From: a virus
DNA length: 64,000 bases
Direction: 5' to 3' (one strand)
IMG/VR virus record: IMGVR_UViG_3300036766_002181
Location: 62,001-126,000 of that record
Position 1 is the stretch's first letter, and each line of letters starts with the position of its first letter. The position numbers were made by a program, and so were the translations under genes. Below the pieces are notes generated by a model. It was not told where the DNA came from. It saw nothing but the letters and a program-made list of their open reading frames with translations, and did no database searches. This document shows positions 31,790 to 53,524 of this stretch, in pieces.

Positions 31790-32212
31790 TTATTTCTGTT
31801 GCTTATATTTCTTAGTGTTATATTCTTTCCAATAGATCCAACCACCATTTTCTGTGTGGAAGCCCCATTCTCTTACCTTTGGTCCCATTAGACAGACTGT
31901 GAGGGTTCCAGGAGACACAGAAACAATTGTATGAGCAGTACCCGCACCAATCAGGTTCAACCACCTGTGGGTTTCCAGGCCCGCCATTCGTCTTTCTGTA
32001 TACTGTCCTCTAAGAATAAGAGACAAAAAGGATACAGGATGATCGTGAAGATAGGGCTCGGGATCAGGGTGATTAAGCCAGTGCAAACAAATGGCAAACC
32101 ATGGAGTCTTAAACAGGTGCAACCTGGTGATATAGTTTGTTGGAACAAAGGTCCAACGCCAAAAGCACCAATTGGTTCCTGACTTATATTCTCTGTTTTT
32201 AAACATATTCAA
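31790..32212 (-). CDS. Cupin-like protein
   Basis: 140 residues. WCFWRWTFVPTNYITRLHLFKTPWF then PEPYLHDHPVSFLSLILRGQYTE (about 51-73) with His pairs and GAGTAHTIVSVSPGTLTV are the two cupin motifs of a small one-domain cupin. HDH and the later His could bind metal. Function cannot be assigned; sugar- or amino-acid-related enzymes are common in this fold. Confidence 0.65.
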   Translation of the reverse strand: MNMFKNREYKSGTNWCFWRWTFVPTNYITRLHLFKTPWFAICLHWLNHPDPEPYLHDHPVSFLSLILRGQYTERRMAGLETHRWLNLIGAGTAHTIVSVSPGTLTVCLMGPKVREWGFHTENGGWIYWKEYNTKKYKQQK

Positions 32213-33841: not shown

Positions 33842-34594
33842 TTAACTCTTAGCGCCAGCTCTATTAATTTGGCAGAGAATTTCTTGTTTAACAAATTCTC
33901 TTATTAACCTATTTTTTGTTGCTCTTTGCCTTTGTTCCTCTTTAAGATCTTCCAATGGAATATCGGTTATTGTATTTCCCATAAGATCGATTATCTTAAA
34001 GTTGCCTCTCTTGTCTTTTAAGACATTTCTCTGGTGTATGTCGATTAACTCAACCCCAATCTTATTGAGATATTTGGCCGTATTATAACACATTACCAGC
34101 ATTGGAAGATCATTCCTGGAAAAAATATGATGATTGTCTTTTCTTACTCTATAAATCACATCCTTAAGATTTAATAAATGGCCCTCAAAAAAAGTTTGAT
34201 CAGAAACCCTTTCAAAAAAGGCAAACTCTTCCTTGGATAGGGGATATAGCCTTTCTTGAATAATGACATAAAGTTCCAACTCCCAGGTATCATGTTCGTC
34301 TCTTGGCTTGGGATTCTGTACAGTAATCCTTGGAAGTTTATAAACACCATAAATGTTTGATATGTGTTTAAGCTTCTTTCCTTTAAGTCTGGCACTGACT
34401 CTGGCTTCAGACCTGTCTGTTGTAAGCTTAACCACATGACCAGATTTTGTAAGATATGCCTCTCCAAAGGCTCCCTTGCCAAGTTGCTGCAAATCAAATT
34501 TAGAGGTCGGGGTTAGACCAAGTTTGTTTGCCAGACTTGGGTGATGCTCAATTAGGGCATCCTTAAAAAATGTTTCTTTTTCAAACGTGCTCAT
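33842..34594 (-). CDS. Protein kinase-like protein
   Basis: 250 residues from ATG 34594. Gly-rich loop LGKGAFGEAY (38-47), Lys56 in HVVKLTTD (ATP-anchoring Lys), catalytic-loop equivalent VELIDIHQRNVL with Asp (about 180-191) and metal-binding IIDLMG (DFG-like, about 201-206). The order and spacing match a minimal eukaryote-like/Rio-type kinase fold. Substrate unknown. It is paralogous to the next gene upstream (shared LTTD...VSARLKGKK and IIQERLYPLS segments). Confidence 0.75.
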   Translation of the reverse strand: MSTFEKETFFKDALIEHHPSLANKLGLTPTSKFDLQQLGKGAFGEAYLTKSGHVVKLTTDRSEARVSARLKGKKLKHISNIYGVYKLPRITVQNPKPRDEHDTWELELYVIIQERLYPLSKEEFAFFERVSDQTFFEGHLLNLKDVIYRVRKDNHHIFSRNDLPMLVMCYNTAKYLNKIGVELIDIHQRNVLKDKRGNFKIIDLMGNTITDIPLEDLKEEQRQRATKNRLIREFVKQEILCQINRAGAKS

Positions 34595-34607
34595 TGACAA
34601 ATTATAA

Positions 34608-36008
34608 TTATTTCTTTTTATTGCTGCTGGCGAGCTTAATGTTTCTTATGGCTCCCCTTGCCAGCTTGTCTTGGGTTGGTACTGTTTCGTCGTCAAAGGT
34701 TTGTGAATTAACATTAGATCTAACCCAAATATAGGCCATTTGATCAAGTTTAATATCTCCTATAGAAATAACCTCTTTTTGATATCCATATTCATCAGCA
34801 ATTTCTGATTTGCCAAGAATGTCTGGATTTAATAAGAAGTCATTTCCTCCACCATGAATTTTGGCCCTCATTACAACGAAAAACTTATTTCCCTTGCTAT
34901 ACAGCAACGTTCCCCAATCCTCTTTTATTTTCTTAATAATGGCAGGATTGACTGTCCAGGAAAAGTGATCTCTGGATTGATGGCCTGCAAAAAAATTTCC
35001 ACCTACTTGGGATCTCCATTTTCCATCCTTTTCTTTTTGTCCGTCAATTGCCTTTTTATTGCCACCCAACATTTGTTGAAGAATTTTTGGATCTACCTCC
35101 ATAAATCTATAGGCATACTGATATCTTTGAGGAACCTCTAAAACTTTTTCATATTTTCCTGCATTCTTAAGTTGATCTAGTTTTTTAATCCAAGGATTTA
35201 ATGCTGATGGACTACCGTGGTAATGAACATTCATGGCATTTTTTAAATCTATTTCTTTTCTGGTATTTGGTTCTTTTGGCTTTGGCGTATCTTTTCTTTC
35301 TGGTGCAAATAAATATTGGCCAAAGACTTCATCCTTAGATGCTTCTGGCGCTTCTGATAATAACAATGTTAACTTTATAAGTTCTTCCCTGATCAGGTCT
35401 ACTAATAGCTGCTCATTTTTTATTTTTGGTATTTTTGATTTTTTTGATGAAAAGCCACGAAGATCAATTATTTTTATATTTCCATCTTTATCTTTAAGAA
35501 CATTTTCGCCGTGAACATCTGATAGATAAATTCCCATTTTTAGTAGGTCATTTGACAGTTCTAGACACATGTTTAATAATGGCAAGTCTTCTTTTACAAA
35601 GCCATCGTCTCCTTCCTCATTTTGTTTTGCTACTTCAATTTCATTTTCCAGACCATTGGTAGTAAGCGTTCCCTCAAAAACTTCATGCAGCTTCCAGAAG
35701 AACTCTTGTTCGTGGGCCGACAAGGGATACAATCTTTCTTGTATGATTGCAAACCAATCCTTCATATAGGGAATCTCTGGCAATCTATATACTTCCAAAA
35801 TATTTGCTATATGCTTTATTTTTTTTCCCTTAAGTCTTGCACTAACCGCAACCTCTTTAGTATCTGTTGTAAGCTTAAGAACGTGACCTGATTCTAACTG
35901 GTAGGCATAACCCCAGGCCCCGCCTCCAAGCTCAAGAGAATGCTCTGTTAGACCAAGCTTCTTGGCAACCTTTGGATAAGATTCAATCAGGTCTTCTTTG
36001 AGAGTCAT
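34608..36008 (-). CDS. Kinase-like protein with ART-like C-terminal domain
   Basis: 466 residues. N-terminal half: LGGGAWGYAY (Gly loop, 27-36), LKLTTD (Lys), IYLSDVHGENVL (catalytic Asp, about 158-169) and IKIIDLRGF (DFG position), as in its paralogue. The C-terminal part (about 255-466) reads YHGSPSAL, AYRFMEVD, HFSWTVNPAIIKKI, LLYSKGNKFFVVMRAKI and YQKEVISIGDIKL, a strand order reminiscent of ADP-ribosyltransferases (R in strand 1, S-T/S-W segment, E before the last strands). A bifunctional protein-modifying enzyme is suggested; the ART part is a fold guess. Confidence 0.6.
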   Translation of the reverse strand: MTLKEDLIESYPKVAKKLGLTEHSLELGGGAWGYAYQLESGHVLKLTTDTKEVAVSARLKGKKIKHIANILEVYRLPEIPYMKDWFAIIQERLYPLSAHEQEFFWKLHEVFEGTLTTNGLENEIEVAKQNEEGDDGFVKEDLPLLNMCLELSNDLLKMGIYLSDVHGENVLKDKDGNIKIIDLRGFSSKKSKIPKIKNEQLLVDLIREELIKLTLLLSEAPEASKDEVFGQYLFAPERKDTPKPKEPNTRKEIDLKNAMNVHYHGSPSALNPWIKKLDQLKNAGKYEKVLEVPQRYQYAYRFMEVDPKILQQMLGGNKKAIDGQKEKDGKWRSQVGGNFFAGHQSRDHFSWTVNPAIIKKIKEDWGTLLYSKGNKFFVVMRAKIHGGGNDFLLNPDILGKSEIADEYGYQKEVISIGDIKLDQMAYIWVRSNVNSQTFDDETVPTQDKLARGAIRNIKLASSNKKK

Positions 36009-36018
36009 TGGCCAACCC

Positions 36019-36909
36019 TCAAAATAGGTTCTTTACAAAGTCAAGAACTCTTTCAAAGAAGCCGGCTTTCTTTTTCTTTTTTGATGGCAATGGCTTGCCC
36101 GATTCAGAGTCAACAGTTGTCCATACCTCTGATTGCAATCCCCAATCCTCATAGGGAAAATAGGTGTAACCATTATCGGCATATCTTTTGCCCCAAGAGT
36201 TTCTAACAATAAATCCTCCCTTGTCTTTTAGATACCCAACAATGCAAGTTGCATGGTAGCCGAGAAGAGCCTGCTTGTCATTTGCCTGTTTCCACATTCT
36301 TGGTCCATAGTTGTACACGGGAATTGTAAGCAGACAGGGACCATTTTTTACAAGAGCCTTCTTTAGGGCATCTATGCTCTTAACAACAGCATAACCCTGA
36401 ACCCTATATTCTGATGCCTCTTTTTTAAGGGCCTCTGTAATTGGTAGGGTTGTAAGATAGGGATAGTCTTTTTCTGGAACAGAGCCTACCTTTGTTAGGA
36501 TTCTCATCACATCTCTTGGATACATTCCCTCACCCTTTGTAGATCTACTATTATAGATAAACTGGGGGCTCATATAGTCCAAGAAATGAACATCCCTTCT
36601 TTCCTGCCATTCCTTCATTGCGGCAGAGGACATTCCAAAGCAACAACCTTGCTTTCCCTGATCTCTTATGGGAAGAAGCTCTGGTCTATAATCAAGATTG
36701 TCTGGAAGGTCATTTAGATTAATGGCCTGATAAATTGTTTCTGCCTCGTGATCTCTTGGATCGTGTGGACTCCTTTGTACTCTATCCAAACGAACATCCA
36801 GTGCCTCTGTTACCTTTCCACCAGAAGGAGGGGAAACAACAGTAGCAGGATAGATGGTCGTGATTGTTGATGATGGTGATGATTTTTTTGATTTTGATTT
36901 TTTGGCCAT
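36019..36909 (-). CDS. Papain-like (C1) cysteine protease
   Basis: 296 residues. Catalytic set of the C1A fold: Gln84 (oxyanion), Cys90 in RDQGKQGCCFGMSS, His219 (GYHATCIVGY) and Asn237 (VRNSWG). The YFPYEDW element follows, as in papain. The first 45 residues are a basic, Ser/Pro-rich segment without signal peptide; a Lys-rich tail ends in FFERVLDFVKNLF. It may process virion proteins or act on host targets after injection. AAGGAT precedes the ATG, and a GGCTTT...AAAGCC hairpin lies at 36929-36949. Confidence 0.85.
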   Translation of the reverse strand: MAKKSKSKKSSPSSTITTIYPATVVSPPSGGKVTEALDVRLDRVQRSPHDPRDHEAETIYQAINLNDLPDNLDYRPELLPIRDQGKQGCCFGMSSAAMKEWQERRDVHFLDYMSPQFIYNSRSTKGEGMYPRDVMRILTKVGSVPEKDYPYLTTLPITEALKKEASEYRVQGYAVVKSIDALKKALVKNGPCLLTIPVYNYGPRMWKQANDKQALLGYHATCIVGYLKDKGGFIVRNSWGKRYADNGYTYFPYEDWGLQSEVWTTVDSESGKPLPSKKKKKAGFFERVLDFVKNLF

Positions 36910-38081: not shown

Positions 38082-38999
38082 TTAAAAATTTAAACTCTTA
38101 TGCTTTTTCTTATGACAATCATGACAAAGAACAATACCAGAAACCTTGTTTGTCAAATGATAATCCGTAACCGCCTTAATAATTTCTTGTTTTAATTGAA
38201 AGGTTTCTATGCTGTATGGCGTGGCAACAGCATAGTGATCAGCCCAACCCAATCGCCTTGCCTCGGATATAACAATAGAAGACATAGATTCTTGATTGTG
38301 ATGGACGTTTAATTTTGGATTTTTATTGCCATTGTTATAAAAATCTTTTCCACATTCCTGACAGGCAAATCTCGCCGCTTCCAAGAAGGGGCGCTTCCAT
38401 TCCTTATAAAGCCTTTTGCTGCTGCTACACATTGTGTGCAACGGAGCAATTCCTCCCTTCCATTGAGAATGCTCTGGTCCGCTTTTTCCCTTAAAAGTTC
38501 CATCTTTCCAATACTTCTTTGCCCTTTCACTTAACCTGGGATCTGCCGATCTGTTTTCGGCCATCTTCTTAATACTTTTATTGGTTTCCTTGGTCTTGCC
38601 CTGTGCCCAATGTTGTCCGGTTTCTTTTTCAAAGAATGGGTGAAAGGTTCCATCCTCAATCATTTTCTTTCGAGTCTCAAGGGACTTTTCTCTTGCCTTC
38701 TGATTGTGACCCCAATTGTTGTTCACACGAGCAGCATGACCACGAATATATTCTCGAAATCCTTCTCGAATTCCAAGAAACTTGGTTTTTTCTCCACAGC
38801 CACAGGCACATCTTGGTTCCGAGCCATTCAATAAGATATAAAGTTCTTTCGATGGTTTTTTGTGGCCTTTTCGAAAGTGAACCGACAAGGAAAGCAAAGA
38901 GGGAAAAAGGGCTGTGCAAAGCGGGCATACATGAGGTTTAATTTCCTCCTCTTCCTCCTCCTCTTTTGATGCTACAATTGCTGCTGTTTTGTTTTCCAT
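38082..38999 (-). CDS. HNH homing endonuclease
   Basis: 305 residues. An N-terminal C2H2-like finger (CPLCTALFPSLLSLSVHFRKGH, about 25-46) and a CACGCGEKTKF mini-finger precede Gly/Lys-rich NUMOD3-like repeats (ETRKKM, SERAKKYWKDGTFKG). The C-terminal HNH core has CQECG (about 215), HHNQESM and CHDCHKKKH near the end. It is free-standing, downstream of the tail-tube gene, as typical of mobile HNH genes that cut intron-less neighbours. Confidence 0.85.
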   Translation of the reverse strand: MENKTAAIVASKEEEEEEEIKPHVCPLCTALFPSLLSLSVHFRKGHKKPSKELYILLNGSEPRCACGCGEKTKFLGIREGFREYIRGHAARVNNNWGHNQKAREKSLETRKKMIEDGTFHPFFEKETGQHWAQGKTKETNKSIKKMAENRSADPRLSERAKKYWKDGTFKGKSGPEHSQWKGGIAPLHTMCSSSKRLYKEWKRPFLEAARFACQECGKDFYNNGNKNPKLNVHHNQESMSSIVISEARRLGWADHYAVATPYSIETFQLKQEIIKAVTDYHLTNKVSGIVLCHDCHKKKHKSLNF

Positions 39000-39081: not shown

Positions 39082-39222
39082 ATGCTGCCATTTTCAACTA
39101 TCGGCTTCGATAATATGGTAGCTCAAGAAACAAGCAGAATAGATCCAAGAAAACGTCGCCACTACATTGTCGAATCAGAGTGTCTAGTATTGTGCCACGG
39201 CGTTATCAAATCTCAAAGTTAA
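39082..39222 (+). CDS. Possible small ORF upstream of HNH gene
   Basis: 46 codons from ATG 39082 on the plus strand, with GFDNMVAQETSRIDPRKRRHY. It fills most of the 184-base gap 39000-39183 but runs 39 bases into the convergent tail-tube gene and has no Shine-Dalgarno. May be chance; otherwise the gap holds only AT-rich sequence. Confidence 0.25.
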   Translation: MLPFSTIGFDNMVAQETSRIDPRKRRHYIVESECLVLCHGVIKSQS

Positions 39223-39675
39223 TGTGATCTCCATCAGGTCAGTTGCAGAGTCATAGGCAAGATCTCCGAACTTGGCCTCTGTAATAAAGGCACCCTTGAT
39301 ATCCCAAAGTTGGACCACTGTTCCAACTGGATCTAACATCTTGATCTGTACGTCTCTCTTGTAAAAGTCAGCATAACCGGCTCTGCCTGAAACTGATTCA
39401 AAACAAAGACGAATCCATTCCATGACCTGCTGGGCTCCTGAAGGGGCAATAGGATCATGAAGGACTACGGCAAGAGTATCAAAGGTGGTTTTTCCGGCAA
39501 CATATCTGGTTGAGTTAATCCAGGGAATAGGAATTTCCTCTGTTTTATAACCAGGGCGAGCAGCAGACTTAACAATAAAAGAATCAATGCCTTCTATGGC
39601 AAAAACGAATCTTCGCTTTGCCAGTGGTTCAAACTTGTTTGGCAACAGGGCAGAGCTATCTAGCGTGATCGTCAT
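39184..39675 (-). CDS. Tail tube protein (T4 gp19-like)
   Basis: 163 residues, the gp19 family size. RRFVFAIEGIDSFIVKSAARPGYKTEEI (about 21-48), TFDTLAVVLHDPIAPSGAQQVMEWI and a C-terminal MEITLTLRFDNA strand follow the tube-protein pattern of contractile tails. It stacks as hexamers inside the sheath. It is separated from the sheath genes by three unknown genes and a homing endonuclease. Confidence 0.9.
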   Translation of the reverse strand: MTITLDSSALLPNKFEPLAKRRFVFAIEGIDSFIVKSAARPGYKTEEIPIPWINSTRYVAGKTTFDTLAVVLHDPIAPSGAQQVMEWIRLCFESVSGRAGYADFYKRDVQIKMLDPVGTVVQLWDIKGAFITEAKFGDLAYDSATDLMEITLTLRFDNAVAQY

Positions 39676-39749: not shown

Positions 39750-40847
39750 ATGATATTTGTTCAAAAAGAAGCTGCTGGTGACTCTGGCATGATAGAAAAA
39801 TCTGGAATTTATCAAATTAAAAATATCATAAACAATAAGTTATATATCGGTTCTGCTAGAAACTTCAGAATAAGATTTAATGACCATATTCATAAACTTA
39901 AAAGGAATAGGCATCCAAATAAATATCTTCAAAACGTTTATAATCAAAACCCAAAAAGCTTGGCTTTTACCATAATAGAAATTGTTGAAAACTGGCAACT
40001 TAATCTTCTTATAAAGGAACAAGAATATTTGAATGTCTTCCACGACAAACAGCAGACCTGTTATAACATGTGTCCTACGGCTGGCTCGGCTTTTGGAAGA
40101 AGACACTCAGAAGAAACCAAGAAAAAGATGTCACGATCTGCTATTGGACAACCGTGTTCTATAGAAACCAGGGCCAAAATGTCTGAGATAAGCAAAAAAA
40201 GAATTAAAGATCACTTTAAATCTGGCAAAGAAAATCCAATGTTTGGAAAAACCGGGAGCAAACACCATTTTTATGGAAAGCACCAAAGCTCAGAATCAAT
40301 TCTTAAAAGAAAAGAAACCATAGCAAAAAGAGACAAACCAATTGCCTATCATGCCAGACAAATTGCCCAATATGATATGGAGGGAAATTTAATTCAGATT
40401 TTTAAATCCGTATCAGAAGCAGAAAGACAATTGAAAAACAAAGGCATCAGTAGTTGCATGTATAGAAAAGCACAAACTTCTGCTGGTTTTGTCTGGAGAG
40501 ATCCGCTAGAGGATGGTTCTTTTCCGTCAAAAATTGATGCAATTACAAAAAAGCCCACTGGCTTTTTTGGCAGACATTCACAAGAGACAATAGAGAAAAT
40601 AAGAAAAAATCATCCAAGCAAAAGATCAGTACAACAATTTGACAAACTCAATCAAGCCATATCTCTTGAAACATATTCCAGTCTAAAGGAAGCCAGCAGA
40701 AAAACTGGAATAGTCTATTCTACAATTTGTGCCTGCTGTAAAGGCAAAAGACCATCTGCCGGCGGATTCATATGGAAATATCTTTTAGAAAAAGAACCGC
40801 CAGCAGATAATCAATATCCACCATCATCATCTTCTGGCTTGTTATAA
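39750..40847 (+). CDS. GIY-YIG homing endonuclease
   Basis: 365 residues, or 352 from ATG 39789 where GGTGA lies 9 bases upstream. GIY-YIG core: SGIYQIKNIINNKLYIGSARNFRIRF (about 17-42) and an asparagine/glutamate region to about 100. NUMOD3-type helices (RRHSEETKKKMS, SIETRAKMSEISKK) and two NUMOD1 repeats (IAQYDMEGNLIQIFKSVSEA and VQQFDKLNQAISLETYSSLK) bind DNA. Opposite strand to its neighbours and directly behind the tube gene start, a usual place for an invading endonuclease. Confidence 0.92.
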   Translation: MIFVQKEAAGDSGMIEKSGIYQIKNIINNKLYIGSARNFRIRFNDHIHKLKRNRHPNKYLQNVYNQNPKSLAFTIIEIVENWQLNLLIKEQEYLNVFHDKQQTCYNMCPTAGSAFGRRHSEETKKKMSRSAIGQPCSIETRAKMSEISKKRIKDHFKSGKENPMFGKTGSKHHFYGKHQSSESILKRKETIAKRDKPIAYHARQIAQYDMEGNLIQIFKSVSEAERQLKNKGISSCMYRKAQTSAGFVWRDPLEDGSFPSKIDAITKKPTGFFGRHSQETIEKIRKNHPSKRSVQQFDKLNQAISLETYSSLKEASRKTGIVYSTICACCKGKRPSAGGFIWKYLLEKEPPADNQYPPSSSSGLL

Positions 40848-40951: not shown

Positions 40952-42385
40952 TTATTTTCCTATTTTAAGCAAAAGTCTCTTTCCAAGTCTTTTTGCTCTT
41001 TCATCGATATCCTCGCCTGACTTATTCCATTCTTCTGGATCAAAGTCCTTATAATAGGCCTCAACTATATTTTCTACAGACATATAGGCGTTATAGGTAA
41101 GTTCTCCTACTGGAAGAACATTAAGAAGGGCCATAATGGTCTGTTGACTGAGAAGATCCTTTTCTTTTCCATTCTTTTCTATGCCGGCCAAAGAAAAGGC
41201 ATACTTCAGGGCAAGTCTATCTTTCTTAGAAAGAGCCATCTCTGCTTCAAGATTTGAAAGAAGTCTTAAACTCTTTTTTCTGTAGCCCTCTGGATTTCCG
41301 AGAAAGTTATCTGCATTATTGTCCTCTTCTGTGTCATCGTCGTCATCATTTTTCTTCATAAAAGGAAGAACCGTACCTTCTTGTTTCATGGTATGGGCAT
41401 CTGCCTTGTAGGGCATTTTAACAGCACCAGAAAATGTTGGATTCTTTGATTTCTTTACAATTCTATCATTGGCCTCAAAGGTTACCTGGGCAATGGCATA
41501 AATCTTTTCAAGAATCTTTGTTCTGATTTTCTTTGATAATGTTTTTATCATGGTTTGAAGTTTTGGTGCAATTCTATAATCTGGGCTTCGATTCATAAGA
41601 ACCTTATGGAGAGCCCAGTTGCTATCATAAATTTTCATAAATTCTTCCCTTGAGGGAAATCCTTTTCTTCCCTTTCCATGAAAAATAAAGGCATCAAGAA
41701 TTTCTTGCAATAAAACAACCTTTATTGCCTCCATTAATCTATCTGTAAGCTCTGCATTTCCAATAACAAGGGCCCGTCTTTCTGGATCCTCTATATATTG
41801 ATCCTCGCAGAAGATTGCATCCTTAAGAACCTTGTCGGTATCAAGATCCCTGTCTTCTTCTTCCTTGTCATCATCATTGGATTCTTTTTTAAGAGGCTCT
41901 TTTTCTTGATCTAGAATTTCTGGATTGTGGTAATGATCGGGCTCATATTCCTCTTTATCATCATAGGGATTATAACGTTTTTTCTTCTTTGCGCCGCCAT
42001 ATCCCCAGCCAAAATCATCGTCGCCATCATCTAAAGAGGTTCTTTTGTTATTAAAATGACCCGGATAACCCCTTGCTTCCTCTACCTCTGTTTTTTCCTT
42101 TGCATCCAAAGAAGTTTTTTTATTATCAAAATGATGATAGCCCCTTGTTGTCCTATCCTTTAATGAAGCATGAAGTTCAATTTCTTTTTGCAGGTCAAAG
42201 TTTGCCTTTAAAAGAGTTTCGTTGGCAAGCTCTACAACCCTATTGTGCGAAACCTCTGCTGCCGTAAAGATGTAGTCGTTAAGGTTTTCTAAATACTTTA
42301 TAAGATAGTTCTTTGCAAGCTCACGACTTTCTCTGGCAGCCTCTTGCATCCAGGGCTTCTGTCTTCTTGGAGGGCGATTGTTCAT
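40952..42385 (-). CDS. Hypothetical virion-module protein
   Basis: 477 residues, helical and highly charged. A duplicated element RGYHHFDNKKTSLD (about 81-94) and RGYPGHFNNKRTSLDD (about 105-120) lies in a disordered acidic region ending near 190. The helical C-terminal part carries SREEFMKIYDSNWALHKVL and LEAEMALSKKDRLALKYAF. It lies in the tail operon between sheath and tube; baseplate, tube-assembly or scaffold roles are all possible. Confidence 0.5.
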   Translation of the reverse strand: MNNRPPRRQKPWMQEAARESRELAKNYLIKYLENLNDYIFTAAEVSHNRVVELANETLLKANFDLQKEIELHASLKDRTTRGYHHFDNKKTSLDAKEKTEVEEARGYPGHFNNKRTSLDDGDDDFGWGYGGAKKKKRYNPYDDKEEYEPDHYHNPEILDQEKEPLKKESNDDDKEEEDRDLDTDKVLKDAIFCEDQYIEDPERRALVIGNAELTDRLMEAIKVVLLQEILDAFIFHGKGRKGFPSREEFMKIYDSNWALHKVLMNRSPDYRIAPKLQTMIKTLSKKIRTKILEKIYAIAQVTFEANDRIVKKSKNPTFSGAVKMPYKADAHTMKQEGTVLPFMKKNDDDDDTEEDNNADNFLGNPEGYRKKSLRLLSNLEAEMALSKKDRLALKYAFSLAGIEKNGKEKDLLSQQTIMALLNVLPVGELTYNAYMSVENIVEAYYKDFDPEEWNKSGEDIDERAKRLGKRLLLKIGK

Positions 42386-43620
42386 TATGGCGCCTGTAGA
42401 TCTACGTCGGGCGGGCCATAGGAATCTGCTATGTCCTGCTGCATTTCATTCCAGGCATCAACTGCCTGTTCCTTGGTTACTTCATCTACAAATTCATTAC
42501 GATTAGAGCTATCAGGGGCTCCGTCATAACAGTTGCCACAACTAATTGTATATCCCCAATAGGATCCATCATAAAGCGTTGGCAAATCTCCACAATCATG
42601 GCATGGAAGAACACCTGGAAGATCCTTGCCTTCTACTTTTCCGCCAGCAAGATCTCTAGGGCCCTCTTCCAAAGCGGGTCTTCTTCCAAATTTATTTGAA
42701 CTTTTATGTCTTCTTTTTTGTTCGTCATAGTCAAAAATAGAACCCAGATCAAAATCATCCTCGCCACAATTTGGACACTTTATGTTTCTCTCATCATCTC
42801 CTATACCAAATCGAGAACCGCAACCATTGCAGCGTATGCGCACCTTTCTAACATCTTCCTTCAGACCTTCTTCTAAAACATCAATATCTGTGCCATGACA
42901 CTTCGGACAGGTAGGATTCATTGAATTTGTACTAAACTTTCTGCCGCATTCCATACATTCAACCCTTACTTTGTGATTATCTTTTCGGGGCTTCTCGGCA
43001 TGTTCGCCTACCGTACCAACAAGAGATCTTTTTGCCACGTTGTTCCTTTTTTCCGTATGCCATGGTTCATAGGCAGAGGGTATTTCCATCCAGGTTGATC
43101 CATCATGGGCACTTGCAAATACTTGGGCAATTTTCTTTTGGATTGGAAACTCATCCAAGACTTTTCTAACCTCTTTGCTATCCTTAACATAGAGATCAGA
43201 TTCAAAATGATGCATTGTCGCATCAATTCCTAAAAGCTCCTGATAAAGACTAGAATGTCCCATTTCTTCATTAACGGGGGCCGGTCTATAGAGGGGTTCT
43301 AATTTGTTTCTTAGCCATTCATAGGGATCGCCTGATCTTGCCTTCTGGATTTCATGGGGCATTTCATCACTATAATAATCAGTTAATACAGACACTAGCT
43401 CTTGAGAAAGGTTGTCTGTTTCTCCTTTAACAAAGGCTTCGAGTTCCTGATCCTCTACAGGATCAAGATCCAATCTTACCTCTTGCTTTTTTACGTAGGG
43501 CCGGAAGCCAAGTTTTTGTGCAACTTTCCTACCAAAAGAAGATTCTTTTAATACAATAGAAGAAACAATTTCTTTCAAATGCCTCTCTGTGAGTTTTGTC
43601 TTAATTGCCATGATTGCCAT
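42385..43620 (-). CDS. Triple zinc-ribbon protein with Lar-like end
   Basis: 411 residues from ATG 43620 with AGAGG 6 bases upstream. Three zinc ribbons: CMECG/CPKCH (about 222-240), CNGCG/CPNCG (about 263-285) and CHDCG/CGNC (about 342-363). The last with VTKEQAVDAWNEM looks like the Lar restriction-alleviation family. The N-terminal 200 residues are helical. DNA or RNA binding is likely; an anti-restriction role is a guess from the Lar-like end only. It is co-transcribed with the tail sheath genes. Confidence 0.6.
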   Translation of the reverse strand: MAIMAIKTKLTERHLKEIVSSIVLKESSFGRKVAQKLGFRPYVKKQEVRLDLDPVEDQELEAFVKGETDNLSQELVSVLTDYYSDEMPHEIQKARSGDPYEWLRNKLEPLYRPAPVNEEMGHSSLYQELLGIDATMHHFESDLYVKDSKEVRKVLDEFPIQKKIAQVFASAHDGSTWMEIPSAYEPWHTEKRNNVAKRSLVGTVGEHAEKPRKDNHKVRVECMECGRKFSTNSMNPTCPKCHGTDIDVLEEGLKEDVRKVRIRCNGCGSRFGIGDDERNIKCPNCGEDDFDLGSIFDYDEQKRRHKSSNKFGRRPALEEGPRDLAGGKVEGKDLPGVLPCHDCGDLPTLYDGSYWGYTISCGNCYDGAPDSSNRNEFVDEVTKEQAVDAWNEMQQDIADSYGPPDVDLQAP

Positions 43621-43645: not shown

Positions 43646-46624
43646 TTACACTTGGTTTGTAACCACAAAGTCAATGCTCACCGTTTCAAGCGTCTTGCTA
43701 GGCGTAATAAATATGGATCCTCTTATAATCCTGTTTTCTAAGTCTGCCTGAGTGGTCGTTGTTGTATCGATCTTAACCAAGAATCTTTCAACTCCCTTTT
43801 GATCCTGTATGGCCTTTAAAATTGGGGTTGTAAGCTGGGCAAATCTTGCAAGGGTTTCTTCACGACCCTGCTCAAAGAGCATTCTATAACCAACGGCCTT
43901 AACCTTGCGTCTAATGTCAATTAGAAGCCTTCGAACGTTAACTCTATCAAGAGAGCTTTCAGTTTGAAGAAGTGTCTTTTGTCCCCAAACCACAACTCCT
44001 TCTGAACCTGCAAAAGAAACAAGTGGATTAATGTTTGCATCCTGAAGAGTGTCCATGTTTTCTTTAGACAGTCTAACGGCTGCCGATTCTACTGTGTCTA
44101 GAGAGCCTCTGGTAAATCCAGCAGGAGCAAACCATGGATGGGCTACTGCATCATTCTTTGCAAAGGCACCAAGAACGGCGACTGAGGGTGGCACCACTCT
44201 GGTTCTTCCTGTAAAACTATCTCTAAGAACAACATCTGGGAAATAGGCAGCACCAAAAGAGCTGTTAATTCCACGGGCTGTATGTTGGTTGGAGGTGTTC
44301 TTAACGCTCAAAATCTGATTACTTGAAGAAATTGGCAAATTCTGAATATCATACTGTGGAACATCCATAATAAAGACAGAATCAAATCTGTTTTCATTAA
44401 CAAGAAGCGCCCTATCAGTGATTACTGTATGGCGAATTCCTGGAACTGCCATCATTTGAATGTCAATTTCTGTAACATCCTCAAAGATATCCAATGCCTT
44501 ATTAAAAGCAGCAACCGTTGGTCCGTCAGTAAGGCCACGATCTGCATAGGTCATTTCTTCTGTCACGGCCAAGTCTGTCATGTTGACGGCATCTCTGTCG
44601 AAAACATTTGTTCCATCAAATCCGCCATGCAAGAAGAAGGAGAACTTGGCAACATTGCGTGTTGCGGCATCAGTCAAATCATTTACAGAAAGGGCTCTAG
44701 TGTCGCTGTCCACTGTAACATTACCATCTCTTACATAAATCCACTCATCCATTTTTTGTGTATTTGGTTTATCAAAGGCATTAATTGCAATTTGTATATT
44801 TCCCAGGGAGAACTTATTATGATTAAATCTATCAGCATCAAGAATGCCATTCTCGGCAGAATCGGCAACTCCCTGGTTATTGCTTAAGACCATATTCATA
44901 AAGTCTGTATGGAAATTTGGATAATACTTGTTAAACGACAGGATGTTGGTATCCTGGGCCGTGCTTAGGTTTGGCTCTGCAACGCTGGTCTTTTCTTCAA
45001 ATTGAATGCCCCAATAAAGAGCCTTATCAACAACTCTATTTGGCGTTGAGCCTCTGGTAATTCTTTCTCTAAGAGGAACAGGCAATTGAACAATATTAAA
45101 GAAGGGATCAGAAACAGAAAGATAATCACCATCATCAAAACTGTTAAATGGAGCCGACCCAGAAGTTACAAGGTGTGGAACCCCACGGAAACCAAATGGA
45201 ACTGCGGCAGGAGAAAGTTCGCCATCAGAAACCTTGTTGGCCATTTCAACTCTCATATATCTTGAATTGTTTTCAAAATTGCCTTCGGTAATAAGCTTTT
45301 GTGAGCCAATTGCTGCATCAAAATTAAAGAAGGTTTTTGTATCTCCAACAATTCGAGCAACATATTGCGGAGAATCAGGATTTAGACTTAATCCTCTCCA
45401 TGCCTCAACTGCAACAGGAGCCTTGTCATTGTCGTTAAAATCTCTTACAAGGAGATCAAACTTGCCATAAGGCTCTGCATCTGTGCCTGGGATAATATTC
45501 TCAATTGAGAACTTAAGTCTAGAGTTTGGTTCCTTGCCATCTGAAAGGGCAGAAATCTTAAACAGATTTTCTTCCTGGCCACCAAATTTCTGTGAAACCA
45601 CATAAACAGATTCGGCAGTACGATATCTGTCTTCAAAATTTTCAAAACTTGGGATCGTGGTTGAGCCCGAGTTTCTAGTTGGCGAAGCTGACGTTAATAG
45701 GAAAACAACGTCTTCAGTTTCGAGTGCTCCCGAGACTGCGCCTACACCAAAATCCTCTAAAACAACACCTGAGCCTGTTGGCGTGGCTAGGGCTGGGTGA
45801 ATTTTATAATCAGCATATAGGAGGTGGCCTGCCTGCTCGACCTTATAAGGATCTGTATTAAGCACCTTGGTAAGATAGTTTGGTGCCGTTGGGTCAAAGG
45901 AGGCTGTAATAACATTTGGAAAGGCTGGATCAGGATTGCTGTGTCCATTTAGAAGCACAACAAATTCTTGACGCCCGTTGGCTATGTTTAGAGAGCCTGT
46001 AAGGCTCCCTGAAGCCGTTGAAGAAGTGCCTGTGGCATCTGGTGCATTGTCTGCCACTCTGCTGCTAGAGAGGGTTGCATACACTCCTGAAGCTGCAAAA
46101 ACAATACCACGAACAACCGGAACTCCTTCTATTGGTAGGCCAGCATCGGAAAAAATTGTTGAGGAACCTGTTTGCTTCATATAGCAACCAAGGACAAAGG
46201 TTCTGCCTTCATCTCCTTCGCCAGGAACGGTTACATATTGATTATCATCAAGACCACCACCAGGAGCCTGTGGAAGAACCGCACCGACAACAAAGCCGCC
46301 AAAAACAACACGGCCAGAGTTGTCACCAGCATCTTCTCTTGCCTTGCCTGAACCGGCACCAAGAACCCTAAGAAAGGTTAATGCCTGTGAATTTCTTAGC
46401 CATTCGATGGCTGCCATGGGAGCAGCAGCCTGATCATCTGTCGATGTACCAAAATCTACCACGAAGTCTGAATCCGTTGGAAGGGTTACAGGAACGAAGG
46501 CTGGTCCCTTTTGAGAAGTGCCTATAACTCCAGCCGGAATACCGGCAGGACGAATTGAAGTTGGACCAGTTCTATTGATTACCCTTGTCGTAACTCCTGC
46601 GCTCTTGTATGTTATTTGTGACAT
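43646..46624 (-). CDS. Tail sheath protein, copy 1
   Basis: 992 residues, much larger than T4 gp18 (659). N-terminal GPTSIRPAGIPAGVIGTSQKGPAFVPVT (about 19-46) and the C-terminal conserved sheath region: HPWFAPAGFTRGSLDTVESAAV (about 838), VSFAGSEGVVVWGQKTLL, then VRRLLIDIRRKV and the final IDFVV strand. A middle insert (about 150-700) forms extra outward domains. AGGAAG lies 6 bases from the ATG. It polymerises around the tube and contracts. Confidence 0.92.
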   Translation of the reverse strand: MSQITYKSAGVTTRVINRTGPTSIRPAGIPAGVIGTSQKGPAFVPVTLPTDSDFVVDFGTSTDDQAAAPMAAIEWLRNSQALTFLRVLGAGSGKAREDAGDNSGRVVFGGFVVGAVLPQAPGGGLDDNQYVTVPGEGDEGRTFVLGCYMKQTGSSTIFSDAGLPIEGVPVVRGIVFAASGVYATLSSSRVADNAPDATGTSSTASGSLTGSLNIANGRQEFVVLLNGHSNPDPAFPNVITASFDPTAPNYLTKVLNTDPYKVEQAGHLLYADYKIHPALATPTGSGVVLEDFGVGAVSGALETEDVVFLLTSASPTRNSGSTTIPSFENFEDRYRTAESVYVVSQKFGGQEENLFKISALSDGKEPNSRLKFSIENIIPGTDAEPYGKFDLLVRDFNDNDKAPVAVEAWRGLSLNPDSPQYVARIVGDTKTFFNFDAAIGSQKLITEGNFENNSRYMRVEMANKVSDGELSPAAVPFGFRGVPHLVTSGSAPFNSFDDGDYLSVSDPFFNIVQLPVPLRERITRGSTPNRVVDKALYWGIQFEEKTSVAEPNLSTAQDTNILSFNKYYPNFHTDFMNMVLSNNQGVADSAENGILDADRFNHNKFSLGNIQIAINAFDKPNTQKMDEWIYVRDGNVTVDSDTRALSVNDLTDAATRNVAKFSFFLHGGFDGTNVFDRDAVNMTDLAVTEEMTYADRGLTDGPTVAAFNKALDIFEDVTEIDIQMMAVPGIRHTVITDRALLVNENRFDSVFIMDVPQYDIQNLPISSSNQILSVKNTSNQHTARGINSSFGAAYFPDVVLRDSFTGRTRVVPPSVAVLGAFAKNDAVAHPWFAPAGFTRGSLDTVESAAVRLSKENMDTLQDANINPLVSFAGSEGVVVWGQKTLLQTESSLDRVNVRRLLIDIRRKVKAVGYRMLFEQGREETLARFAQLTTPILKAIQDQKGVERFLVKIDTTTTTQADLENRIIRGSIFITPSKTLETVSIDFVVTNQV

Positions 46625-46676: not shown

Positions 46677-49600
46677 TTATACGAAACTGGTCCCGGACCT
46701 AGTTATGACAAAATTCATATCAATAAATTCTACTGATCTAACCGGCTTTAAAACAATTCGACAATTGATTTTATGAGCATTGATATCTGCATCAGAATTG
46801 TTCGAACTATCGCAGATAATCTTAAAAGTCTGGATTCCTTGTCTAATTTGAACGCTTGTCATTACTGAATTAATTTGATTTTTTAATTGATCCCTCAAGT
46901 CAGGAGTAATGTTTTCCCAAATTAGGCGATTTCCAATATCGATAACCTGGCGCTTAAGATCATTAAGCATTCTTACAACGTTTACGCTACCAAGAGCAGA
47001 CTCTTGCTGCTCTAAAGTATTTTGTGAAAATATGACATAACCTTCTCTTGGGAATTTAACAATTGGGTTGATATGAGCCGAGAAAAGTCTATTTCTTTCT
47101 GGCTGGGTGATTCTCGTGGTTGTTCTTTTAACAAAATCAAGAGCAGCTCTGTTAAACCCTGCGGGTGCAAACCAGGGATAGGCAACCCTATCGTTGAAGG
47201 CAAGAGCAGATACGGCTGCCACAGAAGCAGGAGCGGTTACTCTTCTTCCATTTGCCTCGTCGTCCATAACAATTTCTGGGAAATAAGAAGCCACGAATTC
47301 ATTATCAATTGCCCTGCCTTCAAGGGCATTTGCAGTTTTCTGTGGATCTGGAAAAATTCCAGTTTCTCCATCAAAAACTCTTTCGCCTGCGGCGTTATAG
47401 TTTGGAACATCCATTACATATAATGCCAGACCATAATCTCTAACCTTGTCGGCATAAAAATCGGTTACAAGTGGATCTCTCTGTCCCGGCACAGCAACCA
47501 CATTAACATTAGATGCCATTGCATCTGTAATAATCTTGGCCGATTCTCTATATGAGGCAACCGTATTATTGGCTATTCCTACTCCGTTTTGATTAAAATC
47601 AAATCCGGGAGAAATAAATGAGCCGTTAACATTTCCTAGAGTACCATCTGTTCTGTCTTCTGTTGAAGAGGCTCTATCGTCATAGGTGGCAGCATGCTTG
47701 TCAAGAATGTTTGCCCCATCAAACCCGCCTTGAAGAACCAGAGTAAATTTAGCAAATTGTGAAAATGCATTAAAGGTAGCAGCAGTTGCTCCCTTGTTAA
47801 CAAGAGTGGCAAAGGTAATCCTGTTGGTTGCATCGTCTGCATCTGTAATCATATAGTTTGTTACGTCAGGAATACCGTTTCTTATATAGGCAGCTTCCTT
47901 AATGTGCGCTTCAGCAGAAGAGGTTAAATCATTTAAACTGGTATTACCAAATGCAACCTTGGCCAGGGTAAACTTGTGATTGTGGAATCTATCCTGATTC
48001 ATAGAACTCGTTACGACAGCATCAAGCTCAGAAATTCCATTAAATTGAGTGTAGGCTGCAATAAGAGCATTTGGCTCTGTTACAGGATTTGGGTTTAGAA
48101 CATCCTTAATTCTTTCTAGTTTAACGCCCCAGAAGAATCTTCCGTCAACAATTTCAAAGTTGCCAGGAGCACCTTCTAGCTTACCAGCCTCTGTGGATAC
48201 TGCTCCACGGGTAATCTTAAATCTAAATGGAATTGGTGGTACAACGGCGGCCAACAACTCTGCATCTGCACCCGAAGTGCCAAGATTTGCATGCAATCTT
48301 TTGATATCTGCGAAATCAGCAAGAGAGCCAGATCGATCAAGCAATCTAGAGTTTGTGCTTAAAACTTCATAGCCTCTAAAGCCAAATGGAAGCGATTCGG
48401 CTGGAATCAATTTGCGCTCGACTTCATCTGAGGCAACAACCCGAACAACCTTTGATATGTTTGCATATCGGCCAGAAACGATAAGTCTACGGTCCTGCTC
48501 GTCTTCTGCATCAAAGTTATAAAAGGCTTTTCTGTCGCCAATCTTATGACAAATATAGTTTTCTGATTCAGGATCAAGATTCACATTATTAAATTGTTCA
48601 AGTATACTAATGTTCGTATCTGTATCCTCAAAGTCTCTTACAAGAACCGTAAATGTGCCAAACTTATATCTTGGATTTGAGGACTTCTTAATATCAGAGA
48701 TAGAAATCTTAAATTTCTTATTTGGAAAAGCCCCATCATCACGGGCTTCGAAATGGAAAAGATTGTGCTCGGTAATGCCAAAGGGCTGAGAAATAATTGA
48801 AGGAGTCTTTGCCTGTTTATATCTTGTATCAAATCTTCCAAAGGCATTTAAGAAAGGAAGACCCGTATCTCCTGAAAGATCGCTGGTCTGTGCAGAGCCA
48901 GAAGCAATAACAACATCTCCGCTGCTTGTTCCTACGCTTGCAACGGCGTCATCTACGGCGAAGTTTGCATAAACAACGTGCTTATATGTGCTAAATTGTT
49001 CTGGATCGGTGTTAAGTACCTTGGCAAAATAATCATCATTTGAAGGATCAAGAGAGGCGGTTACAATTCTAATTCCAGGATTTCCTTCATCGGCGGCAAA
49101 GCTTGCACCCAAGGAACAAGAAATAACAATCTTAAACTTTTTGGTTGTACTGTTTGCGGTCGCAGCATCATCTGCACCAATGGCCCAGGATTCATCATGA
49201 TCAAGAACCTGAATTCTTGTATCATTGGCCGTAAAGATAACGCCTCTTACAAGACGAGCATCTGAGCCAGAAAGACTGGTATTATGTGAAAATCCTGCCT
49301 GTCCAAAAGATTCACTCACTGAAATCTCGTGTCTTGCCACAAGAAACTGAACGGCACCATGAATTGGCTCTGAAGCCAAGGAGGCACTAACCTTAAAGCC
49401 GGCATTTACAACCGTTCCCTGTGTTCTTGTTGTTTCTATATCATCGGCGGTTGTGTTGCCACCAGCCCCCAAAACACGCACGAAAGTAAGGGCAGACCTA
49501 CTGTTGAGATGTTCGATTACAGCATAGGGAGCAGCAAATCTTGGGTTTAAATTGCCAAATCTTGTTTTAAAATCAGGAAAGGAACCAACCGTAACCGGAA

Positions 49601-49727
49601 CGAAGGCAGGGCCTCTTTCTGAGGCCCCTATGATACCCGCAGGAATACCAACTGGCTCTTGAACTTCGGCACTTAAGTCAACTTCTGTAGAAAAAAAGCC
49701 TGGAAATTTAAACACTTGACTCGTCAT
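46677..49727 (-). CDS. Tail sheath protein, copy 2
   Basis: 1016 residues and similar throughout to the copy downstream: VPVTVGSFPDFKTRFGNLNPRFAAPYAV at the start, YPWFAPAGFNRAALDFVKRTTTRI, IVKFPREGYVIFSQNTLEQQESAL and VNVVRMLNDLKRQVID at the end. Middle parts differ in sequence but follow the same order. The two may form a mixed sheath, or serve different zones (cap or contraction end). SD-like AGAGGT lies 9 bases before the ATG. Confidence 0.92.
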   Translation of the reverse strand: MTSQVFKFPGFFSTEVDLSAEVQEPVGIPAGIIGASERGPAFVPVTVGSFPDFKTRFGNLNPRFAAPYAVIEHLNSRSALTFVRVLGAGGNTTADDIETTRTQGTVVNAGFKVSASLASEPIHGAVQFLVARHEISVSESFGQAGFSHNTSLSGSDARLVRGVIFTANDTRIQVLDHDESWAIGADDAATANSTTKKFKIVISCSLGASFAADEGNPGIRIVTASLDPSNDDYFAKVLNTDPEQFSTYKHVVYANFAVDDAVASVGTSSGDVVIASGSAQTSDLSGDTGLPFLNAFGRFDTRYKQAKTPSIISQPFGITEHNLFHFEARDDGAFPNKKFKISISDIKKSSNPRYKFGTFTVLVRDFEDTDTNISILEQFNNVNLDPESENYICHKIGDRKAFYNFDAEDEQDRRLIVSGRYANISKVVRVVASDEVERKLIPAESLPFGFRGYEVLSTNSRLLDRSGSLADFADIKRLHANLGTSGADAELLAAVVPPIPFRFKITRGAVSTEAGKLEGAPGNFEIVDGRFFWGVKLERIKDVLNPNPVTEPNALIAAYTQFNGISELDAVVTSSMNQDRFHNHKFTLAKVAFGNTSLNDLTSSAEAHIKEAAYIRNGIPDVTNYMITDADDATNRITFATLVNKGATAATFNAFSQFAKFTLVLQGGFDGANILDKHAATYDDRASSTEDRTDGTLGNVNGSFISPGFDFNQNGVGIANNTVASYRESAKIITDAMASNVNVVAVPGQRDPLVTDFYADKVRDYGLALYVMDVPNYNAAGERVFDGETGIFPDPQKTANALEGRAIDNEFVASYFPEIVMDDEANGRRVTAPASVAAVSALAFNDRVAYPWFAPAGFNRAALDFVKRTTTRITQPERNRLFSAHINPIVKFPREGYVIFSQNTLEQQESALGSVNVVRMLNDLKRQVIDIGNRLIWENITPDLRDQLKNQINSVMTSVQIRQGIQTFKIICDSSNNSDADINAHKINCRIVLKPVRSVEFIDMNFVITRSGTSFV

Positions 49728-51054: not shown

Positions 51055-52830
51055 TTAACCGTTATAGTGTAATTGATAAACTTCACGAGAAAGACCATAA
51101 TCAAGCAAAACAACCCTGCCGTCTGCTGTCTTGCCCCAGTGTTCTATGGTCCTTAGATCTCCATTGAGCAGTCCTGTGTCTTCCATGAGATACAAAATAC
51201 TTTGAAAGAATTTATTGTGAATTCTACGAGGATGTTTGGCGAACTCTTCTCTGCCGCCTAGCCTATCTGGAAACTTTGTTACATAAAACAAATCTGCAAC
51301 ATCCTGCTCAAAATCCAGTCCTGTTAATTTTTGGAATTCATTATAATCTGTTATTGGTCTAACAATTTCAGAAACTAACCACTGAAACTTTGGATCATAA
51401 TCGTAAATCTTGGCAACAACCGGCTTTGTTTTGGGATTGGTAAAAACATCTACTTCTGTTTCGTTTTGGGCCAGGCCTCTTGCTCCCTTTGCCCACTTTA
51501 AAACGCTTTTATTATCAACAAGATAAACTCTTCTGGCACTTCCACTGTTAAGAAAGGTTCCGTGTCTTTTAAGATAAAGTTCTTGTACCTCTTCTTTTGA
51601 GAAATGCACAGCATCTCCTGCCGACTGTAAATTTTTAAACCTTTGCAAATCAAGAAATTTCTTTTCCAAAAGAAAAGAACCATAGGCTTCTCTTAGGCCT
51701 TTTGGAAGCCGGGCAGATTCTTCTACTGTCTGTTTACCATTGTTATTTATTCTCCGTCTTAGCTCTTCGTTGCCACCTTCAACGGCAATGCCATAATCCA
51801 ATACAACCAATCTTCCATCTGCCGTTTTACCCCAATGTCCGATATAGGTAAGTTCCGAAGCGTATATACCAACATCTGTAATGAAACTAACAATCTTTTT
51901 TAAAAAAGAATTGTCTTTATATCTGTTGAGCACGCGGCCGAGGCTCTCTTGTTGCCAACAGACGGCATTAAATTCTTCAAAAGGAATTCCTGTTAAAATT
52001 TCAAAGTCCCGGTCGCTTGTTAATTCTTTTACCAACTCAGAAACAAGCCATCTAGGACGTTCAAAGTTTGTATCATAATCAAAAATCCTCGTTACAAGAT
52101 CTTTTGTTTTTGGATTTGTAAACACGTCTAGCTCGGCCTGGTTTTGTCTTAATCCAAACTTGTTATAGGCAAACTTTAAAACCTTGTTGTTTGAAAGCAT
52201 ATAGGTTTCCCTTGAAGAGCCCTGACCAAGATATGCCTCTTTTGGAACTCTATGTGCCAAATAGTATTGTTGATCCTCCCAATTTATTATTTTCTTAAAC
52301 TCATTAAAATCAAAGAATTTTTTCCCTTCATTTATAACAACGGGAAAATAAACCTCTCTTAGTGAGAGCACCTCTTGCTGTGTCACCGTCGCAATTGGCT
52401 CATTAAAACCTTTTGTGTTATAATGATATGGCGCAAGCTGTTGCCCTGTAAGAACATGGGCAAAGTCATTATTTTTGTCTCTATTTGGTTCGTCTCCTGA
52501 ATAAAGATTTGGTGTAGACATAAGCTTACTATAGGCAGCATAGACAGCCTTGTGAAGCTTCTCGCTGGTCAGGGATTGGGTTGTATAGGTTGCCATGCTC
52601 CCAAGCTCTTCCATGACGCCCAGACGAAGCTCGTTCATAACAACCTTTCTAAGATCCAAGCCAAGTCTTTTTGCTATATTCTCTACAAACTCTTCTGTTA
52701 TCGTTTTTGGATTAAGGGGGCGGATTCCTGGATTTGCCAGTCCCATGCCAAGATCATCTCGATTGGTAGCCTGCATGTCTTGCTCTAAATAGATCAATAG
52801 TTGGCCCAAATTATTCATTATAGAATCCAT
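51055..52830 (-). CDS. Tandem kinase-like protein
   Basis: About 591 residues from ATG 52830. After a helical N-terminus come two kinase-fold units. First: LGQGSSRETYMLSNNKVLKFA, then YIGHWGKTADGRLVVLDYG. Second: LNSGSARRVYLVDNKSVLKWA, then NGDLRTIEHWGKTADGRVVLLDYG. Gly loop, ATP-Lys and an LDYG (DFG-like) motif are present in both. The HRD-equivalent Asp is kept only in the second (GDL); the first has SEL there. So the first is probably a pseudokinase. It sits between neck-like and tail genes; a virion-borne role is possible. Confidence 0.7.
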   Translation of the reverse strand: MDSIMNNLGQLLIYLEQDMQATNRDDLGMGLANPGIRPLNPKTITEEFVENIAKRLGLDLRKVVMNELRLGVMEELGSMATYTTQSLTSEKLHKAVYAAYSKLMSTPNLYSGDEPNRDKNNDFAHVLTGQQLAPYHYNTKGFNEPIATVTQQEVLSLREVYFPVVINEGKKFFDFNEFKKIINWEDQQYYLAHRVPKEAYLGQGSSRETYMLSNNKVLKFAYNKFGLRQNQAELDVFTNPKTKDLVTRIFDYDTNFERPRWLVSELVKELTSDRDFEILTGIPFEEFNAVCWQQESLGRVLNRYKDNSFLKKIVSFITDVGIYASELTYIGHWGKTADGRLVVLDYGIAVEGGNEELRRRINNNGKQTVEESARLPKGLREAYGSFLLEKKFLDLQRFKNLQSAGDAVHFSKEEVQELYLKRHGTFLNSGSARRVYLVDNKSVLKWAKGARGLAQNETEVDVFTNPKTKPVVAKIYDYDPKFQWLVSEIVRPITDYNEFQKLTGLDFEQDVADLFYVTKFPDRLGGREEFAKHPRRIHNKFFQSILYLMEDTGLLNGDLRTIEHWGKTADGRVVLLDYGLSREVYQLHYNG

Positions 52831-53524
52831 TATTGCCCTGTTCCTCAAAGGCTTCATCCTTTGGATTTCCAAGATCATCCTTCTTTTCTGTGTCTATTTT
52901 TCTTGGGCCATCTCCAAGGGCAATCTCGGCCATATCATTGCCAAGGTGCTCTCGAATCTCTCTCTTGTCTGCCGTAGGCCCCTCTTCGGTTTCTGGGAGG
53001 CCCCTCTGTTGAACAAACTTATTTTGAACCTGGCTATCATTAAAGTTTTTGCTTTTAAACAAAAGCTCCTTAAATGTCTCTATATCAAACTGACCGACTC
53101 TTGATAGCTTGCCGGTTACCTTAACCGCCTTATCATATTCGACCTGGCCATAGATGTTGTCTACGTCTATTGCATTCAATATTTCATAAACCTCTTCACC
53201 ATAAACAAAGAAGTCACCAGAGGTAACAGAAATATCTTTATCAACCAAGTCTCTTGTTTGAATATAAAGCTCAATTGAAGTATCTCCTTCCATGCCAAAG
53301 GCATTCCACTTGGCAGATCTCGTTGGCTGGCCGGCAAGAACATCAAGCTTTATTGGGTTCTCAAAAATCTTTTCAATTGCCTCCTCATAAACCTCATGAA
53401 CCCTTGTCTGAAGCATAGAGATGGGAAAATAAACAATGTATTGGCCAATTACATCTTTTACTAACTCCCTGTTAATATCAGATATAAAATTTTGTTCTTT
53501 AGAACCTATGAATAATCTTGCCAT
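52811..53524 (-). CDS. Neck-like structural protein
   Basis: 237 residues. FISDINRELVKDVIGQYIVYFPISMLQTRVHEVYEEAIEKIF (about 13-54), then strands with FGMEGDTSIELYIQTRDLV and FFVYGEEVYEILNAIDV. The acidic C-terminus is disordered. The block order (connector, neck, tail) and E-x-P-like segments resemble T4 gp14 neck protein; the match is by position and style, not by clear identity. Confidence 0.5.
   Translation of the reverse strand: MARLFIGSKEQNFISDINRELVKDVIGQYIVYFPISMLQTRVHEVYEEAIEKIFENPIKLDVLAGQPTRSAKWNAFGMEGDTSIELYIQTRDLVDKDISVTSGDFFVYGEEVYEILNAIDVDNIYGQVEYDKAVKVTGKLSRVGQFDIETFKELLFKSKNFNDSQVQNKFVQQRGLPETEEGPTADKREIREHLGNDMAEIALGDGPRKIDTEKKDDLGNPKDEAFEEQGNNGFYNE

What the first reader, a model, noticed from the sequence alone, without database searches (positions are those of the whole stretch)
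34608..36008. Kinase-like protein fused to an ART-like domain
The N-terminal half keeps Gly loop, Lys, catalytic Asp and DFG-like Asp. The C-terminal 200 residues show strand order like ADP-ribosyltransferases (YRF, SWTVNP, KEVISIGDI). Fusions of kinase and ART folds are uncommon and would make a double protein-modifying effector. A related kinase-like gene follows and another tandem kinase-like protein is at 51055.
Basis: inference. Interest (0 to 1): 0.65.

Follow-up and report, generated by a model that had tools for sequence, protein, structure and literature searches.

The report
Phage kinase fused to probable ADP-ribosyltransferase
A large phage carries one gene that joins a small protein kinase to a probable ADP-ribosyltransferase, next to a second kinase and a protease, which looks like a phage-made tool set for chemically modifying proteins of the bacterium it infects.

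Summary
The ORF at 34608-36008 lies on the minus strand (466 aa) in a 244,715-bp jumbo-phage record. Residues 1-200 are a small protein kinase with a full set of catalytic residues and a truncated C-lobe. A kinase-only paralogue follows 7 nt downstream (52% identity). A papain-like protease ends 10 nt upstream.

The C-terminal part has no Pfam, PHROGs or PDB sequence match. A DNA search built on its putative ART motifs found a stand-alone 221-aa homologue in another phage (30% over 150 aa, E = 8e-11) inside the head-tail gene cluster. The same search found a minor head protein with three ART repeats whose close relative passes Pfam's ART cut-off. Candidate catalytic residues are R301, S350 and Q410-x-E412.

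Profile comparison supports the ART assignment weakly to moderately. AlphaFold models were too poor to decide (pLDDT 33 and 42). ART identity is therefore probable (about 0.75), not shown.

Best reading: a late-expressed, possibly virion-packaged bifunctional host-modifying effector, combining the strategies of T7 gp0.7 and T4 Alt/Mod. Kinases and ARTs are both known phage effector domains. This is a new variant of a known kind, with an ART subfamily absent from the libraries searched.

The parts
34608..36008 (-). Kinase-ART fusion gene, 466 aa (P0001), ATG start at 36008
35409..36008 (-). Kinase domain, residues 1-200: Gly loop 35910-35930, Lys45 in VLKLT 35868-35882, Asp164/Asn169 in SDVHGEN 35502-35522, Asp182 in IIDLRG 35454-35471; little C-lobe after Asp182
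   Evidence: coordinates; for homology
34674..35303 (-). Linker start and probable ART domain, residues 236-445: R301 in YQYAYRF 35103-35123, S350 in HFSWTVNP 34944-34967, QxE 410-412 in GYQKEVI 34767-34787
33842..34600 (-). Kinase-only paralogue, 252 aa (TTG at 34600; ATG at 34594 is a likely alternative start), 7 nt downstream of the fusion gene
36019..36909 (-). Papain-like (C1) cysteine protease, 296 aa, ending 10 nt upstream of the fusion gene; Cys (QGCCFG), His (GYHA) and Asn (RNSWG) present
   Evidence: (Peptidase_C1 E = 8.9e-18)
39184..39675 (-). Tail tube gene upstream of the cassette (virion gene context)
   Evidence: phrog_4542 E = 1.9e-25
51055..52878 (-). 607-aa protein with two degenerate kinase domains of a different family, in the head-tail gene cluster (context, not a close homologue of the fusion's kinase)

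Best explanation
The gene encodes a bifunctional phage effector. Its N-terminal minimal Ser/Thr-type kinase phosphorylates host proteins, and its C-terminal R-S-[Q/E]xE-type ADP-ribosyltransferase transfers ADP-ribose from NAD+ to host macromolecules. It is made with the virion genes as part of a three-gene cassette (papain-like protease, kinase-ART, kinase), and is most likely carried in the particle and delivered with the DNA, as T4 Alt is, to reprogram host transcription or translation or blunt host defence. Shown: the ORF, the kinase motifs and homology, the duplication, the cassette spacing and the position among virion genes. Probable: the ART identity of the C-terminal domain. Inferred: both activities, the targets, and packaging.
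For: Kinase: phrog_18305 'kinase' E = 8.8e-5; catalytic residues conserved with the paralogue and with three kinase domains of L003, one of which matches the T7-kinase PHROG at 6.5e-6; family profile hits solved minimal kinases and CK2 at E = 0.001-0.006. ART: a motif-derived search of IMG/VR gave six loci, one a true homologue (L017, 30% over 150 aa, pairwise E = 8e-11, similarity well beyond the pattern) and one an ART-repeat minor head protein; a phage relative of that protein (PaV-LD, 54% identical to a repeat) passes Pfam's ART cut-off (24.2 bits against 22.3). R, S and ExE are invariant when those repeats are aligned with T4 ModA and ModB. hhalign 67% (E = 5e-5) and 34% (E = 4e-4) against ART profiles, above all 200 column shuffles. 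Context: the L017 homologue overlaps by 8 bases the head-tail adaptor gene before it and the gene after it, upstream of the tail sheath; the window gene lies a few genes beyond the tail tube. About 44% of phage ARTs sit in contexts suggesting head packaging (PMC9503650).
Against: No library or PDB sequence match for the C-terminal domain. Comparison with T4 ARTs alone is no better than shuffles. Part of the similarity to L021 is by construction; with the searched motif columns held fixed, 1 of 150 shuffles still reached the observed score in each test. AlphaFold models have pLDDT 33 and 42, and structure searches show nothing usable. Only one homologue of the ART domain was found, and no second kinase-ART fusion. 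No evidence of packaging or of either activity.
Confidence: 0.5

Rival explanations
1. Kinase plus a non-ART C-terminal domain: the C-terminal part is a phage-specific domain (for example a virion-targeting or regulatory domain) whose SWT and KEVI motifs resemble ARTs by chance.
For: No family match; no signal against T4 ARTs; structure unsolved.
Against: Motif order and spacing, R-S-[QE]xE set, retrieval of a genuine ART-repeat protein by the motif search, profile scores above shuffles.
Confidence: 0.22
2. Both domains are real, but the protein acts inside the producing cell late in infection (on phage or host proteins during assembly or lysis) and is not packaged.
For: Position next to tail genes suggests late expression but does not show packaging; T4 ModA and ModB, and T7 gp0.7, are made in the infected cell (general knowledge).
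Against: Late timing makes host takeover of the same cell less useful; the L017 homologue lies in a head-tail operon, a typical context of packaged ARTs.
Confidence: 0.3
3. The ART domain is degenerate and non-catalytic, kept for binding or as a decoy.
For: Q410 in place of the first Glu of ExE; no assay.
Against: The catalytic Glu position (E412), R301 and S350 are kept, also in L017; QxE is a normal active form in the R-S-E clade (general knowledge of ART families).
Confidence: 0.12

Closest known systems
Polyvalent effectors of phages with Kinase-PolyVal and ART domains (Iyer et al. 2017, PMC5512222)
   Same: Kinase with lost C-lobe and intact active site; ARTs, proteases and kinases in one phage-encoded set; a related contig (L003) is a giant multi-domain protein with three kinase domains
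   Different: Only two domains here; ARTs typical of polyvalent proteins are of the H-Y-D type, this one would be R-S-[Q/E]xE; the Kinase-PolyVal model scores below its cut-off
T4 Alt, ModA and ModB ADP-ribosyltransferases
   Same: R, S and [EQ]xE motif set in the same order; host-modifying phage ARTs; Alt is packaged
   Different: No detectable profile similarity to T4 ARTs alone; T4 ARTs carry no kinase
T7 gp0.7 protein kinase
   Same: Small phage Ser/Thr kinase; the paralogue's best phage hits are T7-like kinases (E = 0.02) and a family member matches the T7 kinase PHROG
   Different: No ART; early gene; host-transcription shut-off function in the rest of the protein (general knowledge)
ART repeats of phage minor head proteins (L021, Planktothrix phage PaV-LD, cyanophage PSS2, Porphyromonas phage 005b)
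   Same: Closest profile match to the C-terminal domain; YR, SWT and EKEV motifs; head-gene context
   Different: About 20-25% identity; fused to head proteins or in repeats, not to a kinase

Membership tests
Protein kinase-like superfamily | Gly loop, VxK Lys, catalytic Asp and Asn, DFG-type Asp | tested here: met
   G28/G30/G33, K45, D164, N169, D182, all kept in the paralogue
Protein kinase-like superfamily | Significant profile match to known kinases | tested here: met
   phrog_18305 E = 8.8e-5; PDB kinases E = 0.001-0.006 with the family profile; Pfam Pkinase only 0.045-0.15, below cut-off
Kinase-PolyVal (PF18762) | Score above Pfam gathering cut-off | tested here: not met
   15.2-16.9 bits against 27
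Kinase-PolyVal (PF18762) | Loss of C-terminal subdomain, Gln in last N-lobe strand | tested here: inconclusive
   Homology ends about 20-30 residues after D182 and Q90 is present, judged from sequence only
ART superfamily, R-S-E clade | Arg on strand 1, S-[TSW]-[ST] on strand 2, [EQ]xE before a late strand | tested here: met
   R301, S350-W-T, Q410-K-E412; aligned with L017, L021 and other ARTs; strands themselves not verified
ART superfamily, R-S-E clade | Match to a curated ART family | tested here: not met
   No Pfam or PHROGs ART hit for this domain
ART superfamily, R-S-E clade | Profile-profile similarity to verified ARTs | tested here: inconclusive
   67% and 34% against head-protein ARTs, above free shuffles; 1/150 with searched motif fixed; none against T4 ARTs alone
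ART superfamily, R-S-E clade | ART fold | tested here: inconclusive
   AlphaFold pLDDT 33 and 42; no significant structure match
ART superfamily, R-S-E clade | NAD+-dependent ADP-ribosylation | not testable with these tools
   needs an assay
Packaged phage effector (Alt-like) | Present in the virion and injected | not testable with these tools
   only gene context available

The most novel reading that the evidence does not exclude
The two domains work together on shared substrates: a dual-mark enzyme in which phosphorylation and ADP-ribosylation of the same host target are coupled, delivered in the particle with a papain-like protease and a second kinase as one kit. The ART part founds a phage ART subfamily that moves between virion operons both alone and fused to kinases.
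Probability: 0.12. Interest if true: 0.7.

Novelty: new variant of a known kind. Interest (0 to 1): 0.45.

Why it matters
If both domains are active, one phage protein would carry out two of the classic host-takeover modifications (T7-style phosphorylation and T4-style ADP-ribosylation). The C-terminal family is missed by Pfam and PHROGs, so ARTs in jumbo phages are probably under-counted. The architecture is small enough to express and test directly.

Tried and rejected
Close-relative scans with the whole protein, the C-terminal part, and kinase alignments in viral and bacterial contigs found no second kinase-ART fusion; tblastn against phages and plasmids found none. Two phage hits at E = 4-7 were not pursued further: one is antisense to an annotated gene, the other lies in an unannotated fragment. 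A relaxed second motif scan gave 38 loci; of the 12 besides L017 that I translated, two are copies of one prophage protein and the rest are chance matches; most of the others carry a match of the same 186-base length as that prophage protein and were not read one by one. Single-sequence and five-sequence AlphaFold models were unusable; the top PDB structure hit is a chain of an ART toxin subunit, but at E above 2 and TM 0.11 I give it no weight. Direct comparison with T4 Alt/Mod failed. An array of tandem proteins with FRG...SKFA...E motifs beside a kinase in LR756508.1 looked ART-like, but profiles do not support it. One typing slip: repeat 1 of L021 was entered as KNST instead of KNLT in A5, A6 and A7; A8 used the exact sequence.

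Full report
Where it is. The window is positions 62001-126000 of a 244,715-bp virus record. Tail sheath, tail tube and head-tail adaptor genes in it mark it as a contractile-tailed jumbo phage; sheath relatives are found in two IMG/VR contigs at 57-66% identity. The finding's ORF is on the minus strand, 36008 down to 34608, 466 aa. It follows a papain-like C1 protease (36909-36019, Pfam E = 8.9e-18) by 10 nt, and is followed after 7 nt by a kinase-only gene (34600-33842), so the three genes are probably co-transcribed. They lie a few genes beyond the tail tube gene (39675-39184), with an HNH endonuclease gene in between.

The kinase half. The first 200 residues carry the Gly loop, Lys45, Asp164, Asn169 and Asp182. 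The paralogue is 52% identical and keeps them all. PHROGs gives 'kinase' at 8.8e-5. Kinase relatives were found in L003, a giant polyvalent protein with three such domains, one matching the T7 kinase PHROG at 6.5e-6, and in L004 and L005, where the catalytic part is lost. A profile of the six sequences hits solved minimal effector kinases and CK2. Homology ends soon after Asp182, so the C-lobe is truncated, as described for Kinase-PolyVal (PMC5512222); that Pfam model itself stays below cut-off. The 51055 protein is a different, degenerate double kinase.

The C-terminal half. Neither Pfam, PHROGs nor PDB sequences match it. The residues expected of an R-S-E type ART are there: R301 (YAYR), S350-W-T, and Q410-K-E412 followed by a hydrophobic stretch. 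A degenerate DNA pattern from the last two motifs was run on IMG/VR and gave six loci. One (L017) encodes a 221-aa protein that aligns over 150 residues at 30% (E = 8e-11), including stretches that were not in the pattern: GKY.K.L.V, Y.YR, RAK, NPD, GDI. This establishes a real family. Another (L021) is a minor head protein with three repeats (phrog_16619); its relative in Planktothrix phage PaV-LD passes Pfam's ART cut-off, and the Porphyromonas phage relative sits near an ADP-ribosylglycohydrolase gene. Aligned with T4 ModA and ModB, these repeats share R, S and ExE.

How strong is the ART assignment? hhalign of the two-sequence family against L021 repeats gives 67% (E = 5e-5) and against the wider set 34% (E = 4e-4); 200 column shuffles never reached these scores. 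Because L017 and L021 were chosen by motif, I repeated the test with the motif columns held fixed: 1 of 150 shuffles reached the observed score in each case. Against T4 ARTs alone there is no signal. I put ART identity at about 0.75.

How it probably works. The L017 gene overlaps by 8 bases the head-tail adaptor gene before it and the gene after it, ahead of the tail sheath. In the window the fusion lies a few genes past the tail tube, and in a related phage (L010) the place right after the tail tube holds another gene with ART-like motifs of a different type (by eye). So this region of the virion gene block appears to collect protein-modifying genes. ARTs in such places are thought to be packaged and injected, as T4 Alt is (PMC9503650). 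I infer that the protein is made late, is probably carried in the particle, and modifies host proteins by phosphorylation and ADP-ribosylation. The QxE form (ExE in L017) suggests that its acceptor may not be arginine (general knowledge of ARTs; inference).

Novelty. Both domains are known kinds and have been described in polyvalent phage proteins (PMC5512222). I found no second example of this two-domain fusion in the collections searched, and the ART subfamily is absent from Pfam and PHROGs. That makes it a new variant of a known kind.

Noticed in passing
window 51055-52878 (-): 607-aa protein with two degenerate kinase domains (phrog_4301); in phage G006 three adjacent genes of similar kinase-like type lie in a row (L071; the one tested matches phrog_4301).
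   Followed up: partly
L077 (LR756508.1 322000-350000), 7495-15888: Seven related genes, six of them in tandem, with FRG...SKFA...EV.FDG motifs, followed directly by a kinase of the family studied here; ART-like by eye, not supported by profiles.
   Followed up: partly
L003 1-5214: Giant polyvalent protein with three kinase domains and a cytidylyltransferase-like domain in one reading frame.
   Followed up: partly
L010 17180-18247: Right after the tail tube in a related phage: gene with FFHCTPSKNLQAIMRDGI motif, resembling H-type (Tpt1/HYD) ARTs by eye.
   Followed up: no
L004 9842-10243 (-): Small gene with a Tpt1/HYD-like ART motif pattern by eye, near the degenerate kinase.
   Followed up: no
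window 43646-46624 and 46677-49727 (-): Two tandem tail sheath genes of about 1000 aa.
   Followed up: no
window 53560-54645, 38082-38999, 39750-40847, 42385-43620: Several homing-type (GIY-YIG, HNH) endonuclease genes inserted in the virion gene block.
   Followed up: no
L067 1576-4421: Porphyromonas phage minor capsid protein with an ART domain, near an ADP-ribosylglycohydrolase gene on the opposite strand.
   Followed up: no
window 31790-32212 (-): Cysteine dioxygenase-like (cupin) gene near the cassette (phrog_4786 E = 4.7e-25).
   Followed up: no
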